Assembly (NCBI GenBank): GCA_903864895.1
Contig: CAIPHQ010000163.1
Coordinates: 1 to 45,498 of the forward strand
Reading direction: 5' to 3'
Source: an uncultured Rhodospirillales bacterium
GTDB taxonomy: Bacteria; Pseudomonadota; Alphaproteobacteria; Acetobacterales; Acetobacteraceae
Length of the DNA stretch: 45,498 nt
In this document: positions 9,664 through 45,498 of the stretch, one piece after another
Numbering within the stretch: the first letter of the stretch is position 1
Layout: every line of letters starts with the position of its first letter
Notes under the pieces: generated by a model
The model's database searches: none
What the model saw: the letters and a program-made list of their open reading frames with translations, nothing else
Told to the model about the DNA's origin: nothing
Translations under genes and position numbers: made by a program

Positions 9664-10281
9664 ATGCCAGTCTTCATCAAGGGCCAGGCCCGGGTTTTGT
9701 TCATTCACGTGCCCAAGACCGGTGGCACAGCGGTGGAATTCTTTTTCGAGAAGAATGGCTGGGACATCTCGTTCGTGGATCGCGGTGGCGACCATTCACT
9801 GGTGCCGGTGATGCACTGCTCACCCCAGCACCTGCACGCAGACGTGTTGCAGCAGGTGTTCCGGCTGAAGGGCTTCAGTTACATGTTCATGACGGTGCGC
9901 AATCCGCTGGACCGGCTGGTGTCGGAATACCGGATGCGCGCGCATATGCAAGCCACCATTGAAGACATCGACACGTGGGTTGAGGCGGTGCTGGGCGGCT
10001 TTCAGCAAAACCCTTACCTGATCGACAACCACATTCGGCCACAAGCCGAATTCTGGGTGCCGGGGTGCGAAGTCTTCAAGCAGGAATACGGCTTTGGCGA
10101 GGCATGGGTGGATCATATTGCCAGCCGGGTTGGCGGCCGGTTCGATCATCGGCAGGTCGGCGTGGAGATGCGGTTTGATGCCGTGGCACGTCCGGCGCTG
10201 TCGGTTGCCGCGATGCGGCGGGTGCGGGAGTTCTACGCGCGTGATTACGAACTGTTCGCCTATGAACCACCGGCCGTGTAA
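9664..10281 (+). CDS. Sulfotransferase family 2 domain protein
   Basis: The 205-residue protein has the two PAPS-binding signatures of sulfotransferases: the 5'-phosphosulfate loop HVPKTGGTA (15-23) and the 3'-phosphate motif VRNPLDRLVSEYR (78-90). This is the pattern of the family that includes heparan sulfate 2-O-sulfotransferase and bacterial relatives that modify polysaccharides or Nod-factor-like glycans. There is no signal peptide, so it should act in the cytoplasm. A ribosome-binding site, CAGGAA, lies 7 bases before ATG. The next gene encodes a double glycosyltransferase, so a sulfated cell-surface glycan is a reasonable inference. Confidence 0.85.
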   Translation: MPVFIKGQARVLFIHVPKTGGTAVEFFFEKNGWDISFVDRGGDHSLVPVMHCSPQHLHADVLQQVFRLKGFSYMFMTVRNPLDRLVSEYRMRAHMQATIEDIDTWVEAVLGGFQQNPYLIDNHIRPQAEFWVPGCEVFKQEYGFGEAWVDHIASRVGGRFDHRQVGVEMRFDAVARPALSVAAMRRVREFYARDYELFAYEPPAV

Positions 10282-36886: not shown

Positions 36887-38233
36887 TCAAACCCCAACCG
36901 CCTCCAGAAGATCGTTCAGCCCCAAGCGCGCGAGATGGCCAGTGTCGATGCCATCGACGAAACTGTCGAACAGTTCCTGCTTGCGGGCGATAATGTCGGC
37001 AATCCGGGTCTCGATGGTGTCCGGCGTCAGGTAGGAGAAGACTTGGACCTGTTTGGTCTGTCCGATGCGGTGTGCACGGTCCTCTGCCTGCGCGGCCGAA
37101 GCGGGCGTCCACCAGTGATCGAACAGGACCACCACCGACGCCGCCGTCAAATTGAGCCCGATGCCTCCGGCCCGCAACGACAACACAAGGGCGCGGCAGG
37201 CCGGATCGGCACGAAACCGCGCCATGATTTGCGCGCGGACGCCCGAATCCAGACCGCCTTGAATCACCAGCGGGCGGAAGGGACGCAGGCGGTTCGCAAT
37301 CGCTTCGACGCCGAATGGGGCGCGAACGAACTGGCTGAACACCAGCGCCTTGTCTCCAGTGGCCGTGAGAACTGCGGTGCGCTCCGCCAAATCGTCCAGC
37401 TTAGCCGATTCGGCGGTTTCAGGGTGCGCGTTGCAGATCTGCTTCAGACGCAAAATCATTTCTAGCACCTCGGTCACCTGCACTTTGGCGCCGAGCGAGC
37501 GCAGCCAGACGATGCCGTCACGCTCCGCGATGTCGTAGGCGAGACGCTGCGCGGGCTGCATGGGTTGCAGGATGGCGTGGCGGTGTTTTTGCGGCAACAG
37601 CGGCAAAACATCGGCCCGGCGGCGCCGCAGCATCACCTCATCGATCACGGTTCGCAGACCAACTGCCATCCGTCGGCGATCAAACCGGCCCGGAACAACA
37701 AAGTCAAAAATTGCCACCAGATCGTCGAGACAGTTTTCCAGCGGCGTCCCGGTCAAGGCCCAGGAAGAACGCCGTTGCACCGCGCAAACCGCCCGATGCA
37801 CCTCGGTTTCCGGATTTTTGATCCGCTGTGCCTCGTCGGCCACGACGACGCCCCACTGGCGTTGCAACGGCGCGCCGGTGCCGCGCATTGGCAAATCCGC
37901 GACGAGGCTCTCATAGCCGGCAAGCACCACATCGGCCGGGGCACGCCATGCGGCTTCGCGTTCCTGCTGCGTGCCGCGCACGGTTGCCAGCCGCAGTTCT
38001 GGCGCCCACGCGCGCAACTCGGCCCGCCACTGCAGAACCAGACCAGCGGGCGCGACGATCAACGCAGGCGCACGGTCGCCGCCCAAGTGGCGGAGCCGCA
38101 AGGCGGCAATTGCCTGGATCGTCTTGCCGAGCCCCATGTCGTCGGCCAGCAGCAAAGACCCAGCCGAAAGTCGCAGTGCGCCTTCGATCTGGTAAGGAGC
38201 CAACGGGTTGCGCCACGCAAGTCCCGGAGGCAA
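36887..38233 (-). CDS. SNF2-family DNA helicase/translocase (compact)
   Basis: The 448-residue protein is almost only the SNF2 motor. It starts with the Q-like motif NPLAPYQ, then Walker A DDMGLGKT (31-38), the Walker B box DEAQ (133-136), motif III LTGTPLEN, and in the second RecA-like lobe ALVFSQF, SLRAGGIGLNLTAA and motif VI AQAEDRAHRIGQTK. Such proteins use ATP to move along duplex DNA. The N-terminal regulatory region of larger SNF2 proteins is missing. The start appears to be TTG 38233, 4 bases after the stop of the upstream ATPase gene. It is the last gene of a four-gene module. Confidence 0.9.
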   Translation of the reverse strand: MPPGLAWRNPLAPYQIEGALRLSAGSLLLADDMGLGKTIQAIAALRLRHLGGDRAPALIVAPAGLVLQWRAELRAWAPELRLATVRGTQQEREAAWRAPADVVLAGYESLVADLPMRGTGAPLQRQWGVVVADEAQRIKNPETEVHRAVCAVQRRSSWALTGTPLENCLDDLVAIFDFVVPGRFDRRRMAVGLRTVIDEVMLRRRRADVLPLLPQKHRHAILQPMQPAQRLAYDIAERDGIVWLRSLGAKVQVTEVLEMILRLKQICNAHPETAESAKLDDLAERTAVLTATGDKALVFSQFVRAPFGVEAIANRLRPFRPLVIQGGLDSGVRAQIMARFRADPACRALVLSLRAGGIGLNLTAASVVVLFDHWWTPASAAQAEDRAHRIGQTKQVQVFSYLTPDTIETRIADIIARKQELFDSFVDGIDTGHLARLGLNDLLEAVGV

Positions 38234-38237
38234 CTCG

Positions 38238-39458
38238 TCACTCGGGATCTTCGACGCCTTCCGGCACCAGCGTCAGATCGTCGTCCTGAGTGTAGACGGT
38301 CGGTGCCAGTTCGGTGGTAACGGTCGTATGAATACCCCTGAGCCGCAGCATATCCCACTGCATCACCCAGCCGCGAATATGGTGCCGCATGGTCCTGCTG
38401 GCTTCGCGTGGCAGGATCTCTGCGGCGGGTGCCGCCCAGCCATACGCCTCAGTGTAGCAACGGCGGACGATTGCCTCGTTACGTGCCAGCAAGGCGTCAT
38501 CGAGCCTTGGCAGCGCCACTGGGCCTTCGATGGCGCGGATCGCCTGCAATGCGAGCTCCGCCAGATGTGGCGTTCCCCGGAGCCTCAGCCGCTCAGGCAT
38601 TCTCTCATCGTCCTGCCGTGCATTGATGACTTCGGCGGCGAAATCCGACGACACTGCAGCAATCACGCGAATGCCATCGACCCGCAGACCGGCGTTCAGG
38701 CCAAGCCACTGGGCTAGCTCGGCATAGGCAAGCGCGCGTTGCTGCGGGCCATAGCGGCCGATCAACTCCACTTCGTCGAGCATCACCACCCAGCCGGCGA
38801 ACCCGGCGGCCTGAAACAACTTCGGCAGAAAGCGCAGGCGCTGGCGTGCCAGTTCGGCCGGTTTGACCGGTGCAAGATCGAACATACCGCGGGCGCCGGC
38901 GTCTTTCAGTGCCGCCCGGAGCGTGGGCAACGGCGGCTTGCCGCCAGCTAGGAACGCTTCGATCTGCTGACGCAGGTCAGGTTTCATCGCACGGTTCAAC
39001 AAATACAGCGCCGCGGCAAAGACCGGCGACAACCCGGAATCGGGCTCCGAAGCCCAATCGTTCAGCATCCGCACCGCGTCCTGAGTTGCTTCGATTCGCG
39101 TCAGGCAATGCGATATCGTATCGTCATTGATGCGTTGCATGCGTGTATTTCGGATGGCAGCAGCATATATTACGCCAGAAATAGAAAGCGGGGTTTCCTT
39201 GCTGATTGTTACGATGCTCACTGCAAAATTTCGCAATAATGCGACCTGTCGCAGATAGCCCAGCAAATGCGACTTTCCGGTACCGAATTCGCCGGCAACT
39301 AGGAACCCAGGCTGGTTTTCATCGTCCAGCAATGATCGGAACTGCTGCTCGATGTATGCGTCCGGGCTGCCGAGCAGGCGAATGGCCTCATCGTTCGGCA
39401 CTCCGGACCGCAACGCCTCGATTGCCAGCCGATCAGGCACACGGCCGCGGCGGGTCAT
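38238..39458 (-). CDS. BREX-type ATP-binding protein (DUF2791/BrxD-like), intact ATPase
   Basis: The 406-residue protein has Walker A GEFGTGKSHLLGYL (56-69) and, after a helical insertion, Walker B WVVMLDEVELIGRY (223-236, with D228 and E229). The 'GxFGxGKSHLL...LDEVE' pattern is that of BREX ATP-binding domain proteins (DUF2791, including BrxD). In known loci these accompany helicases in phage defence. Here it sits between a SNF2 helicase and a degenerate paralogue. Start ATG 39458 forms an ATGA overlap with the upstream gene. The N-terminal part holds a stretch of low GC (43% over 39121-39240), which hints at transfer. Its exact role is not known. Confidence 0.8.
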   Translation of the reverse strand: MTRRGRVPDRLAIEALRSGVPNDEAIRLLGSPDAYIEQQFRSLLDDENQPGFLVAGEFGTGKSHLLGYLRQVALLRNFAVSIVTISKETPLSISGVIYAAAIRNTRMQRINDDTISHCLTRIEATQDAVRMLNDWASEPDSGLSPVFAAALYLLNRAMKPDLRQQIEAFLAGGKPPLPTLRAALKDAGARGMFDLAPVKPAELARQRLRFLPKLFQAAGFAGWVVMLDEVELIGRYGPQQRALAYAELAQWLGLNAGLRVDGIRVIAAVSSDFAAEVINARQDDERMPERLRLRGTPHLAELALQAIRAIEGPVALPRLDDALLARNEAIVRRCYTEAYGWAAPAAEILPREASRTMRHHIRGWVMQWDMLRLRGIHTTVTTELAPTVYTQDDDLTLVPEGVEDPE

Positions 39459-40396
39459 TGCAGTTCCACCAAGGGTGCCAAAGGATTGTCACCCTGCTCC
39501 GGCCGGACATCATTGCGCACGCGCATGTGCAGCGCAGCATACCGGTCAAGGGAACGGCGAGAACCTGAATCCAGCAGGCCGCCATCGGCGATCACGGCGA
39601 CAAATACCCCCTCCAGTTCGCTCGCGTCATCGATCGTCTGCCGCAGCACCTCGTAGACGTCCAACACCGCCGCCGGCGTGTAGACAATGCCATCGCGGAT
39701 ATCGCGGCGTTCTTTCAGCAGCTGGCGAATGTCGATGAGAATCAGCATGCCGGGTGCTTCGCATGATCGAAGCCAGTGGCAGAGCGACTTCAGCATGACC
39801 CGCGCATTGTGCCGGCCGATTTTCGCGCCGATCCGCGCCTCCTTCACCTCGGTCAGGCGGCGAAGGCGACCGGTCAGCCAGCCGATCAGCCCGTCGCGCA
39901 ACGTGTCCCGGCTGTCATCGAGGCGGGTATCCAGCAAGAACAGCATCGCACTGCGAAAATCCTGCGCCATCGCGGCGTCATCCCAAACGGCGCGCGTCAG
40001 TTGCTGGCTGATCTGCCGCTGAAACAGGCCCTTTGCAACTGTATTCGCCGCGGCCAGCTCCGGCATACCGAGGCGCTTTCCTGGCTCCGGCCAAACATAT
40101 CCGGATTCGGCGACGATCAATTCTAGCCGCCGCTGCAATACGCGATCCCAATCAACTTCCCGTCCAACTGCGAAGAATATGTTCTGCAACATATGCAGCT
40201 TGGTTGCGGCGGCGTCGATCTTAACACAGATCAAATTGCTCGCCTGCGCCTCCTGTTGCAGTCCGTGCAGCACTCTGTCGCCGACCTGCTCCGCCGGAGC
40301 CACGACAAAGCGCACGGCACTGCCGCCATCCGGCAGATAGGATTGCAAATACTCCCTGCGGATCAGCCCAAGCCACTCGTCAACCGCGATTGCCAT
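39455..40396 (-). CDS. Degenerate paralogue of the BREX-type ATPase
   Basis: The 313-residue protein shares the layout of its downstream neighbour but lacks its catalytic residues. Where the P-loop should be it reads RFVVAPAEQVGDRVLHGL (29-46), without GxGKS. Where Walker B should be it reads GMLILIDIRQLLKER (216-230), without the catalytic Glu. It begins MAIAVDEWLGLIRREYL and ends with a conserved-looking RNDVRPEQGDNPLAPLV. I infer a non-hydrolysing partner subunit. I chose ATG 40396 over the frame to 40468, since the overlap with the upstream gene is then 17 rather than 89 bases. The link to DUF2791 is by pattern only. Confidence 0.6.
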   Translation of the reverse strand: MAIAVDEWLGLIRREYLQSYLPDGGSAVRFVVAPAEQVGDRVLHGLQQEAQASNLICVKIDAAATKLHMLQNIFFAVGREVDWDRVLQRRLELIVAESGYVWPEPGKRLGMPELAAANTVAKGLFQRQISQQLTRAVWDDAAMAQDFRSAMLFLLDTRLDDSRDTLRDGLIGWLTGRLRRLTEVKEARIGAKIGRHNARVMLKSLCHWLRSCEAPGMLILIDIRQLLKERRDIRDGIVYTPAAVLDVYEVLRQTIDDASELEGVFVAVIADGGLLDSGSRRSLDRYAALHMRVRNDVRPEQGDNPLAPLVELQ

Positions 40397-41195
40397 CGGC
40401 GCTGTCCGTTTCGGCGGGTAGGGCGTAAAAGCGAATTCCGGCAAAAATATGCTCGCCGCCACGCTCATCGAACACGGTCACGCGCTCGGCCCCTCGCGCG
40501 CTTGTGGACGCGTGCAACGAATACCCGTAACCGTCTCTTGTGCGGGCGTCGGGGGCGCGGTTCAAATGCAGCAGGTCGCACGCGAACGCTTCACGCGGAT
40601 AGTCGGCAGCGGCGGCGGGCAGCACCGTCATCATCTCGTGCAGCCGCAGCAGTGAAATGATCGGCCCGGCCGCTTCCGTTTCCCGCTTCCAGGATTGCGC
40701 CAGAGGACGGTAAACGCGCCAGACCAGTTCCAGAAAGCCCTGTGGATTGGGTTTGCTCTGCTGCTGCGCCTTCAAAAGGCGCTTGACCAGGACACTTGGC
40801 CGCACGTCCCGCACCAGCCTGCGGCCCACGCGCACCGCCTGCGCCCGCGGCTCTAGCTTCAACAGCGATGGAAACGCGCTCAGCCGACTGTCCCGTTCGA
40901 TCAGCACCAACCCGTTCGCTGCCGCCTGCGTGCCCAGTTCAGCCACATAGCGACCATCCTGCATCGCCTGGGAGAGATCGAATTCGAACTGTGCGGCAAG
41001 CGCTCTGGCCACCGGGATGGCCGCTTCCAGCTCGCGTGGCGCGGCTTCCAGTTCGGACTGCATCTTCAGCACATCGCCACCCGCCGCACTGCGCCGCGCG
41101 CGCGCCAGACGCGAAAGTCCCCGTTTCACTTTCGCCTCGGCCGCAGCAATCTCGCTCTCGATATGCCGCAGGGCGGTCTCGAAGTCCCCAGCCAT
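40380..41195 (-). CDS. Unrecognised protein, first gene of the ATPase/helicase module
   Basis: I do not recognise this 271-residue protein. Residues 1-80 are rich in Ala, Glu, Arg and Lys and likely form a long helix or coiled coil (ETALRHIESEIAAAEAK). The middle is basic (VRVGRRLVRDVRPSVLVKRL), and the C-terminal third looks like a compact domain with HEMMTVLPAA and HIFAGIRFYALP. No enzyme motif, signal peptide or membrane helix is seen. ATG 41195 is preferred, with AGGG 8 bases upstream, over a frame to 41270 that would include the promoter and operator. It may be the recognition or scaffold part of the module, perhaps in the place of the TerB-type protein found with such ATPases elsewhere. 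Confidence 0.75.
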   Translation of the reverse strand: MAGDFETALRHIESEIAAAEAKVKRGLSRLARARRSAAGGDVLKMQSELEAAPRELEAAIPVARALAAQFEFDLSQAMQDGRYVAELGTQAAANGLVLIERDSRLSAFPSLLKLEPRAQAVRVGRRLVRDVRPSVLVKRLLKAQQQSKPNPQGFLELVWRVYRPLAQSWKRETEAAGPIISLLRLHEMMTVLPAAAADYPREAFACDLLHLNRAPDARTRDGYGYSLHASTSARGAERVTVFDERGGEHIFAGIRFYALPAETDSADGNRG

Positions 41196-41227
41196 GCACT
41201 GAACCCTGATCCAGAGCGTCCGATGAT

Positions 41228-41256
41228 CGACACGCCGACGCACATATGGCGTGTCG
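41228..41256 (-). promoter_or_regulatory. Inverted repeat (candidate operator) at the module's transcription start
   Basis: CGACACGCC (41228-41236) and GGCGTGTCG (41248-41256) are perfect 9-bp arms with an 11-bp spacer. The repeat begins 4 bases downstream of the -10 box, so it covers the predicted first transcribed bases. This is a common place for a repressor operator; it could also form an mRNA leader hairpin. Confidence 0.5.
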
Positions 41257-41259
41257 TTA

Positions 41260-41287
41260 AGTCTACGCAACTGACGGCAGCTGTCAA
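41260..41287 (-). promoter_or_regulatory. Sigma-70-like promoter of the ATPase/helicase module
   Basis: On the minus strand a perfect -35 box TTGACA (41287-41282) is followed after 16 bases by TAGACT (41265-41260), 4 of 6 matches to TATAAT. It lies in the 111-bp gap between the polA stop and the first gene of the module, so the module should be transcribed on its own. Confidence 0.55.
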
Positions 41288-44341: not shown

Positions 44342-45373
44342 ATGATACCCCTGCTGGCTATGCATTCAACCTTGCAAGACCGTGATGCCGCATCCTGGCT
44401 GACCCGGCGTGCCGTGCTGGGCGCGTTGCCACTGGCCGGGTGTGGCGTAGTGACGCTGGCAGCGGAGCCGTTGGCGGTGCCGGGGCGGTACCAGAACGGC
44501 ACGTTCGTGATGCAAGACGGCACAAGACTGCCCTATCGGCGCTGGCGCCCGGCGGGACCTCCAACGGTGGTGGCGCTGGCGTTGCATGGCTTCAATGACA
44601 GCCGCGACGCTTGGGATCTGCCAGCCACCGAGCTCTGCGCCGCCGGGTTCGTGATTTACGCGCCCGACCAGCGGGGATTTGGCGGCACCGCCACCCGAGG
44701 CCAGTGGTCCAGCACGGCACAAATGGTCGCAGATGCTGCCGACATGGCCCGGCAGGTGCAGGCGTTGCACCCGGCAGCCCAATTGGTGCTGTTGGGTGAA
44801 AGCATGGGCGGCGCCGTTCTGATGTGCCTTGCCACCAGCGGGCAGGCACCTGCGGGTGCGCGCTACGTGCTCTCGGCACCGGCCGTCTGGGGCCGCATCA
44901 CCATGAACGCCGCCATGCGTCTGGGTCTGTGGCTGACATCCGCACTCTTGCCGGGGCTGGCAGTCAGCCGCGCTCCGGTGCGGGTTGTGGCCTCCGACAA
45001 TCGTGAAGCGCTCGTACGCCTGTCGCGCGACCCGCTGACGCTGCATACGACCAGGTTTGGCACGCTGCGCGGCCTGGTGGACCTTATGGACGCGGCCCTG
45101 TCCGCCGCCCCGGCCTTCACCGCGCCCGGACTGTTCCTGTATGGCGGGCGCGACGAACTGGTACCGCCCGGGGCCATGGCCCGGATGTGGCGCCGGCTGC
45201 CAAACGGTGACACGGTGCGCGCCTATTACCCGCAAGCCTATCACCTGCTGCTGCGCGACATGCACCGCGCCGCGCCCTTGCAGGACATCGCCACTTGGGC
45301 GCAGGCAGCGGATGCGCCATTGCCTTCCGGTGCCGATCGCGCGGCAGAAAGTTGGCTTGCACGCCAACCCTGA
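44342..45373 (+). CDS. Lysophospholipase-like serine hydrolase with lipobox
   Basis: The 343-residue protein has a twin-Arg signal-like start, LTRRAVLGALPLAGC, whose LAGC (C34) is a good lipobox, so a lipid-anchored envelope protein is likely. The alpha/beta hydrolase domain shows LHGFNDSRDAW (oxyanion part), APDQRGFGGT, nucleophile LLGESMGGA (S154), acid region YGGRDELVPP and His in YPQAYHLLLRD. This is the Hydrolase_4 (monoacylglycerol lipase/lysophospholipase) pattern. The substrate is probably a lipid ester but is not proven. Start ATG 44342 follows AAGGG; ATG 44360 is another option. It is divergent from the zf-CHCC gene. Confidence 0.88.
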   Translation: MIPLLAMHSTLQDRDAASWLTRRAVLGALPLAGCGVVTLAAEPLAVPGRYQNGTFVMQDGTRLPYRRWRPAGPPTVVALALHGFNDSRDAWDLPATELCAAGFVIYAPDQRGFGGTATRGQWSSTAQMVADAADMARQVQALHPAAQLVLLGESMGGAVLMCLATSGQAPAGARYVLSAPAVWGRITMNAAMRLGLWLTSALLPGLAVSRAPVRVVASDNREALVRLSRDPLTLHTTRFGTLRGLVDLMDAALSAAPAFTAPGLFLYGGRDELVPPGAMARMWRRLPNGDTVRAYYPQAYHLLLRDMHRAAPLQDIATWAQAADAPLPSGADRAAESWLARQP

Positions 45374-45421: not shown

Positions 45422-45498
45422 GGACCCGTAGCTCAGCTGGATAGAGCGTTGCCCTCCGAAGGCAAAGGTCGTACGTTCGAATCGTATCGGGTCCGCCA
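45422..45498 (+). tRNA. tRNA-Arg, anticodon CCG
   Basis: The 77-base gene ends exactly at the window edge. The acceptor stem is GGACCCG paired with CGGGTCC, discriminator G, and an encoded CCA. The anticodon arm TTGCC-CTCCGAA-GGCAA gives anticodon CCG, which reads CGG, a common Arg codon in GC-rich genomes. The T arm has GTTCGAATC. All parts are intact. Confidence 0.95.

What the first reader, a model, noticed from the sequence alone, without database searches (positions are those of the whole stretch)
36887..41287. Four-gene ATPase/helicase module: candidate undescribed defence or DNA-processing system
A compact minus-strand operon encodes, in order, an unknown protein with a coiled-coil start, a degenerate ATPase, an intact BREX-type ATPase (GEFGTGKS, LDEVE) and a stripped-down SNF2 motor. 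The genes overlap by 17 and 4 bases or are 4 bases apart, so they are made together, and they have their own promoter. BREX-type ATPases and SNF2 motors are known parts of phage-defence loci, but no methylase, PglZ phosphatase, DUF1998 or nuclease gene is present, so this fits neither BREX nor DISARM. It lies between housekeeping genes (ptsI and polA), as defence islands of small size often do.
Basis: partly seen in the sequence, partly recalled or inferred. Interest (0 to 1): 0.85.

Follow-up and report, generated by a model that had tools for sequence, protein, structure and literature searches.

The report
Undescribed AAA+ loader and SNF2 module
A four-gene bacterial operon belongs to a widespread, apparently undescribed family in which a probable DNA-binding protein and a dead/live pair of ATPases travel together, often with a DNA motor that in some relatives carries a DNA-cutting domain, so it is probably a defence against foreign DNA, though no experiment shows this yet.

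Summary
The four minus-strand genes are real (A 40380-41195, B 39455-40396, C 38238-39458, D 36887-38233). B and C are BrxD-like AAA+ proteins; B has lost the Walker A motif, C is intact. D is a minimal SNF2 motor. A is new: predicted coiled coil plus probable winged helix.

A-B-C is a conserved unit: adjacent in 71 of 81 relatives' loci from several phyla; the other ten are cut by contig ends (6), fused B-C (2), interrupted (1) or incompletely called (1). D follows C in about half. Elsewhere an extra gene X often precedes D, and in 10 loci D ends in a Mrr nuclease domain, as ZorD does. A-B-C without D stays under purifying selection, so A-B-C is the core and D an optional effector. Distribution is patchy, at differing sites. 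Four of 45 loci inspected have confirmed defence neighbours; here the flanks are housekeeping.

It is not BREX, Shango, Zorya or DISARM. It most resembles the BrxD-BrxHI and SngB-SngC pairs: an AAA+ protein beside an SF2 motor. Best reading: an anti-invader module in which A-B-C places a motor on foreign DNA. Defence is inferred, not shown.

The parts
40380..41195 (-). Gene A, 271 aa: N-terminal antiparallel coiled coil (helices 5-39 and 42-69), small beta domain (99-128), C-terminal probable winged helix (about 133-258)
   Evidence: translation; AlphaFold2 mean pLDDT 92 from 68 sequences; Pfam only sub-threshold matches (E 0.06 or worse), PADLOC and NCBIfam none; winged-helix reading from weak fold matches, Z 5.5-6.3
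39455..40396 (-). Gene B, 313 aa: AAA+ fold, nearest ORC/Cdc6 type, without Walker A; Walker B Asp kept, next residue never Glu
   Evidence: PF10923 8.3e-9; AlphaFold2 pLDDT 95; A. pernix ORC2 1w5t Z 11.5 over 168 residues, BrxC 9zll Z 9.6 over 213; no GK[ST] in the first 60 residues of 55 of 55 B proteins, Asp222 in 55 of 55
38238..39458 (-). Gene C, 406 aa: intact BrxD-like AAA+ ATPase
   Evidence: PF10923 5.8e-15; GKS and DExE motifs in 81 of 81 C proteins, window plus 80 loci
39270..39293 (-). Walker A of C, GEFGTGKS (residues 56-63)
   Evidence: sequence
38766..38780 (-). Walker B of C, LDEVE (residues 227-231)
   Evidence: sequence
36887..38233 (-). Gene D, 448 aa: minimal SNF2/SF2 motor, no accessory or nuclease domain (TTG start)
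   Evidence: PF00176 1.6e-45, PF00271 2.5e-17; PADLOC best ZorD, DpdE; translation
38120..38143 (-). Motif I of D, DDMGLGKT
   Evidence: sequence
37826..37837 (-). Motif II of D, DEAQ
   Evidence: sequence
41260..41287 (-). Promoter-like site TTGACA-16-TAGACT (weak evidence)
   Evidence: 10 of 12 matches; 2 sites found against 0.6 expected

Best explanation
The operon is one branch of an undescribed anti-invader module whose core is A-B-C. Shown by sequence or prediction: B (dead) and C (live) are BrxD-like AAA+ proteins and in two loci are one polypeptide; A is a predicted coiled-coil protein with a probable winged helix; D is a SNF2 motor, with a Mrr nuclease domain in some relatives. Inferred: B and C form a mixed AAA+ assembly, as ORC and clamp-loader complexes mix dead and live subunits; A gives it DNA contact; ATP binding by C makes it grip foreign DNA and place or license the motor D, which tracks along the duplex. 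Versions with Mrr then cut. The window's version must block by translocation or DNA remodelling, or rely on another nuclease. Versions without D presumably act by gripping DNA or use another cellular motor.
For: A-B-C adjacency in 71 of 81 loci, the other ten explained; B-C gene fusions in L125 (two copies) and L127; Mrr domain on D in 10 loci, with D and QCK of the signature in all 10 and RDGG in 9 (RDRG in L111). Both other pairs of BrxD-like ATPase and SF2 helicase that I met belong to defence systems: BREX type 2 BrxD-BrxHI (PMC12839542 section 24) and Shango SngB-SngC, which restricts phages (PMC10250203 passages). Patchy distribution: 12 of 299 in the order, 13 of 33 in one genus at three or more sites; in that genus a gene that adjoins A in three genomes is matched in 29 others with the match ending before A. 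Fast change: A 51, B 56, C 60, D 70% identical to the same-genus genome against 90 and 92% for polA and the PTS enzyme. GC3 0.69-0.76 against a mean of 0.81. Defence genes near the module in L070, L105, L110 and L126.
Against: No experiment. Only 4 of 45 loci inspected have a confirmed defence neighbour; I read neighbours by eye, profiled only some, computed no enrichment, and did not profile neighbours of the other 36 loci. The window's flanks are housekeeping. I saw no recombinase beside the operon. The window's D has no nuclease, and about half of the loci have no D, so the effector of those versions is unknown. One flanking gene (44342-45373) is also only 65% identical to its same-genus counterpart, so fast change at this place is not unique to the operon. 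Protein searches with C found one weak hit on plasmids and none in phages, fewer than one might expect of a mobile defence system.
Confidence: 0.55

Rival explanations
1. A-B-C(-D) is a genome-maintenance or replication-stress machine of the cell itself (an ORC-like loader acting at damaged or stalled DNA, with SNF2 as remodeller), not a defence.
For: Housekeeping neighbours here: polA and the PTS cluster; beside polA in both held genomes of the genus and at one shared site in three g78 genomes; purifying selection, dN/dS 0.10-0.44; in two Acidimicrobiia loci the core sits next to an XPB-like helicase; phyla partly cluster on the C tree, 18 label changes against 34.8 in shuffles.
Against: Absent from most sampled relatives, different sites within one genus, fast divergence, a restriction-type nuclease domain on D in 10 loci of several phyla.
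Confidence: 0.25
2. The Acetobacteraceae version is a defence system being reduced: it has lost X and the nuclease, often D, and may keep only a regulatory or domesticated role.
For: No X and no Mrr found in the window or in any held locus of its group; D remnants in L036 (the same contig as L076) and L037; truncated X and no D in L102, a locus outside that group; no close D elsewhere in the D-less family genomes searched.
Against: A, B and C stay under purifying selection without D; P-loop and Walker B intact in 81 of 81 C proteins; D motifs I and II intact in the window. The direction of change (loss or gain of X and Mrr) is not established, as the tree is unrooted.
Confidence: 0.15
3. It is a divergent BREX or Shango remnant.
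For: Shared PF10923 ATPase and a neighbouring SF2-type motor.
Against: BrxD model scores 47 and 36 bits against a cut-off of 350; no TerB-containing gene, no PglX/PglZ/BrxC in the operon or among 10 flanking genes tested; A and X match no PADLOC model; A-B-C recurs as a unit in 71 of 81 other loci.
Confidence: 0.05

Closest known systems
BREX type 2 BrxD-BrxHI pair
   Same: BrxD-like ORC/Cdc6 AAA+ ATPase encoded directly beside an SF2 motor; BrxD is proposed to load or activate the helicase (PMC12839542, section 24)
   Different: One ATPase, not a dead/live pair; BrxHI is Ski2/Lhr-like, D is SNF2; BREX has BrxC, PglX and PglZ; no A or X
Shango (SngABC)
   Same: A PF10923 ATPase next to an SF2 helicase in a compact three-gene system; anti-phage activity reported (PMC10250203 passages)
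   Different: SngA has TerB_N, TerB and TerB_C domains and SngC is a DEAD-type helicase; here no TerB, a SNF2 motor, two ATPases and the unrelated protein A
Zorya type I ZorD
   Same: SNF2 motor, and in some relatives a C-terminal Mrr nuclease domain
   Different: No ZorA/B/C; D is shorter, and nuclease-less in the window
DISARM DrmD, Dpd DpdE, BREX BrxHI/BrxHII models
   Same: Motors of defence loci with PADLOC profile matches to D, DrmD and DpdE also in NCBIfam
   Different: None of their partner genes seen; D has nothing but the motor domains

Membership tests
BREX (type 2) | BrxD equivalog: NCBIfam NF033438 above its cut-off | tested here: not met
   C 47.0 bits, B 36.4 bits, cut-off 350
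BREX (type 2) | PglX methylase, PglZ and BrxC/PglY in the locus | tested here: not met
   None among the 4 operon proteins and 10 flanking proteins scanned; the rest of the genome was not scanned
BREX (type 2) | Ski2/Lhr-like BrxHI helicase beside BrxD | tested here: not met
   D matches SNF2-rel_dom 1.6e-45; Ski2 class of BrxHI from PMC12839542 section 24
Shango | SngA with TerB domain | tested here: not met
   A has no TerB match; two Shango loci, L140 and L141, show TerB_N/TerB/TerB_C
Shango | SngB ATPase | tested here: inconclusive
   C matches SngB at 4.9e-5 over 40 residues around the P-loop only
Shango | SngC DEAD/DEAH helicase | tested here: not met
   D is SNF2; SngC of L140/L141 is DEAD
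Zorya type I | ZorA-ZorB motor genes with ZorC | tested here: not met
   No such match among operon and 10 flanking proteins (for D 25 of 39 families were shown)
Zorya type I | ZorD: SNF2 plus Mrr-like nuclease | tested here: not met
   Window D scores 160.7 against a cut-off of 1500 and has no Mrr domain; some relatives have one
DISARM | DUF1998 gene, PLD gene and methylase with DrmD/DrmA (definition recalled) | tested here: not met
   No such domain in the operon; D scores 69.5 and 62.8 against DrmD cut-offs of 950 and 610; 10 flanking genes are none of these
Any anti-phage system | Demonstrated restriction of phage or plasmid | not testable with these tools
   Needs a plaque or transformation assay

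The most novel reading that the evidence does not exclude
A-B-C is a self-sufficient ORC-like DNA-gripping machine, a dead/live AAA+ pair with a winged-helix subunit, to which effectors are attached interchangeably (SNF2, SNF2-Mrr, perhaps XPB-like or SCO1167-type helicases, or none) and which inhibits foreign DNA even without its own motor or nuclease.
Probability: 0.3. Interest if true: 0.8.

Novelty: new variant of a known kind. Interest (0 to 1): 0.62.

Why it matters
It would add a third kind of locus in which a BrxD-like AAA+ protein is coupled to an SF2 motor, besides BREX type 2 and Shango, and the first that I know of with an explicit dead/live AAA+ pair plus a candidate DNA-binding subunit. 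The role of BrxD is called uncharacterised in PMC12839542 (section 24), with helicase loading as a proposal. The natural B-C fusion proteins, the D-less versions and the Mrr-bearing versions form a natural deletion series that makes the loader idea directly testable.

Tried and rejected
Single-sequence scan of genome contigs with C found no relative; the alignment scan found 237. Sequence searches of the PDB gave only designed and other coiled coils for A and nothing better than E 0.05 for C and B. Fold search with A gave no Foldseek match at E <= 0.001 and mostly coiled-coil rows. Fold search with B gave no Foldseek match at E <= 0.001 either; the AAA+ rows come from the second aligner, where VCP (Z 10.2) and HslU (9.5) stand close behind ORC2 (11.5), so the AAA+ fold is firm and the ORC kinship less so. 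Direct profile comparison of B and C was weak (probability 7.5%, E 0.0047), so their kinship rests on PF10923, the NCBIfam and PADLOC BrxD matches and the B fold. Plasmids gave one weak hit and phages none. The class and phylum scans with B added one true member (G675). Nine of the weaker hits were opened: L133-L139 look like BREX type 2 by gene order read by eye (profiled for L137 only), L140 and L141 are Shango. A tRNA-targeted element was considered: the only tRNA found in the window is 4 kb from the operon, so it was dropped.

Literature: searches, in an open-licence library only. That the module is undescribed rests on these and on parts of PMC12839542 (outline, passages, section 24); its supplements were not read.

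Weak points of the counts: the 80 loci are the best of 237 matches and over-represent the window's family. Of the 38 loci with D next to C, one is a remnant (L076) and one another SNF2 (L119). The five close D genes are rows of the query itself. Ten of 55 B proteins have GK[ST], but near residue 215 and not at the P-loop place.
Full report
WHAT IS THERE. The window is contig C163 of a 5.08 Mb genome of a family that, judged by the titles of its relatives' records, is Acetobacteraceae. Four minus-strand genes lie between polA and a PTS enzyme gene: A (271 aa), B (313 aa), C (406 aa), D (448 aa), overlapping by 17 and 4 bases and then 4 bases apart. C and B both match Pfam BrxC_BrxD (5.8e-15 and 8.3e-9); the credible matches of D are SNF2 and helicase domains; A has no credible family match. 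The promoter claim is weak, and co-transcription from polA is possible.

COMPOSITION AND RATE. GC3 of A-D is 0.69-0.76 against a mean of 0.81 (SD 0.045) over 37 predicted window genes, the operon included. The only other held genome of the genus has the operon beside polA too. There polA and the PTS enzyme are 90% and 92% identical to the window's and the other genes of the PTS and two-component cluster 78-96%, but A 51%, B 56%, C 60% and D 70%; a hydrolase beyond polA is also low, 65%. The operon changes faster than most of its neighbours, or was exchanged at that place.

CONSERVED UNIT. An alignment-based scan of the genome-contig collection (84,980 species) found 237 relatives of C, of which the best 80 were kept; with one more (L132) they give 81 loci. 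A-B-C are adjacent on one strand in 71 of 81. Of the other ten, six are cut by contig ends (L070, L074, L082, L086, L094, L111), two have B and C fused (L125 twice, L127), L112 has a partial second A in between, and in L128 A was seen only in the ORF scan. By record title the hosts include Pseudomonadota, Chloroflexota, Acidobacteriota, Actinomycetota, Bacillota, Nitrospirota and Myxococcota.

THE MOTOR IS OPTIONAL. A D profile hit follows C within 1.5 kb in 38 of the 72 loci with room to see it, is absent in 34, and 9 contigs are too short. One of the 38 is an 87-residue remnant (L076) and one is a different SNF2 helicase of the SCO1167 type (L119). On the C tree this state changes at least 12 times. 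In 14 genomes of the window's family, a close D (E below 1e-240) occurs only in the five where it adjoins C; other SNF2 genes score 348 bits or less. dN/dS is 0.10-0.44 in all 28 gene comparisons of 10 locus pairs; in three of the pairs (L091/L092, L082/L086, L072/L107) D is absent from both. So A-B-C is a selected unit without its motor.

THE NUCLEASE AND X. Outside the window's group, a protein X of about 180-200 residues and unknown family follows C in 20 loci (in 18 with D behind it; two contigs end first), is truncated in L102, and is fused to the front of D in L132. In 10 loci D ends in a Mrr-type domain; three were tested with Pfam and match Mrr_cat at 2.2e-26 to 1.2e-22. The Asp and QCK residues are present in all 10, with RDGG before the Asp in 9 and RDRG in L111; their catalytic meaning is recalled, not computed. 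The window and the held loci of its group have neither X nor Mrr. Whether they lost them or others gained them is open.

STRUCTURE. A: pLDDT 92; helices 5-39 and 42-69 form an antiparallel coiled coil, then a small beta domain, then helices and beta strands. Residues 148-262 align with six chains at Z 5.5-6.3, among them RctB, a TFIIE-containing complex and Wadjet JetABC, whose matched parts I recall as winged helices. That is in the range where only a common arrangement may be shared, so 'winged helix' is an inference. B: pLDDT 95; best matches are archaeal ORC2 (Z 11.5, 3.1 A, 168 residues), then VCP, yeast and human ORC complexes, BrxC (9zll, Z 9.6, 4.6 A, 213 residues), RdrA, HslU and TnsC. 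No B has GK[ST] in its first 60 residues (0 of 55). The Walker B Asp is kept in 55 of 55 and is never followed by Glu. All 81 C proteins keep GKS and DExE. B thus looks like a conserved dead partner of C.

DISTRIBUTION. Strong C matches: 12 of 299 genomes sampled from the order, own genome included (6 further rows are weak, E 3.5e-4 to 9.9e-4); 13 of 33 in genus g75; 3 of 5 in g78; 2 of 2 in the window's genus. Among 11 g75 loci there are at least three sites: L154/L155, L033/L157 and L160/L161 each share several flanking genes; L158 shares one gene with L161; L031, L156 and L159 share none, on short contigs. L030 shares its left flanking gene with L154/L155: DNA of L030 matches G1057 and G1064 from that gene through A-B-C, while in 29 other genomes of the genus the match to that gene ends before A (the list was cut). 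The C tree keeps phyla partly together: 18 label changes, minimum 10, shuffled mean 34.8. This fits old spread with some transfer and repeated insertion or loss, not a uniform vertical housekeeping set.

NEIGHBOURS. Ten flanking genes of the window are polA, PTS/HPr/RapZ/HprK, a two-component pair and two hydrolases; PADLOC hits only polA, with a DRT polymerase model. Of 45 loci whose neighbours I read by eye (the other 36 were left out as Acetobacteraceae-like), four have defence genes confirmed by profile: L070 (Argonaute-associated TIR protein and short Argonaute), L110 (DUF1156 methylase and PLD-helicase before, pPIWI-associated nuclease after), L105 (HsdR-like), L126 (HsdM). Neighbours tested in L092, L100, L102, L103, L125 and L127 gave none. 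No enrichment was computed.

MECHANISM. Shown: kinship of B and C to BrxD, the AAA+ fold of B, the dead/live split, gene fusion, conserved order, SNF2 motor, nuclease domain on some motors. Inferred: B-C assembly, DNA contact through A, ATP-gated gripping of foreign DNA, loading or licensing of D. The analogy is to the BrxD-BrxHI pair, where helicase loading has been proposed (PMC12839542, section 24 read whole), and to Shango, which restricts phages (PMC10250203, passages). ZorD is another defence motor with a Mrr-like domain (PMC11890865, passages; its SNF2 class from PADLOC).

COMPARISON. It works like those pairs but is a member of none: the BrxD cut-off is missed by far (47 and 36 of 350 bits), there is no TerB gene, no PglX/PglZ/BrxC and no ZorA/B in the operon or the 10 flanking genes tested, and the motor class differs. 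I rate it a new variant of a known kind. PMC10952713 and PMC11096173 were seen as passages; other papers only in listings.

LIMITS. The 80 loci are the best-scoring third of 237 and favour the window's group. Gene calls come from a simple codon model of mine. Tree support is SH-aLRT only. Defence is an inference from parts, relatives and distribution.

Noticed in passing
L117 and L126 (Acidimicrobiia), around A-B-C: The core sits between a conserved protein of 573-622 residues and an XPB-like SF2 helicase instead of SNF2, suggesting a different motor partner.
   Followed up: partly
L125:2207-6914: The fused B-C gene is present twice in tandem, and no SNF2 gene was found after it.
   Followed up: partly
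L110:457-12835: A-B-C-X-D lies in an island with a DUF1156 methylase, a PLD-helicase and a pPIWI-associated nuclease.
   Followed up: partly
L112:3433-4335: A partial second copy of A lies between A and B.
   Followed up: no
   Followed up: no
L119 and L131 (Actinomycetota): A SCO1167-type SNF2 helicase follows C in L119, and a 1111-residue SNF2 protein lies on the other side and strand in L131: perhaps another motor partner.
   Followed up: partly
window 45422-45498: tRNA-Arg (CCG) at the window's end, 4 kb from the operon, also beyond polA in the same-genus genome (L009).
   Followed up: no
window 9664-10281: A gene of lower GC (0.597) than the window mean (about 0.67).
   Followed up: no
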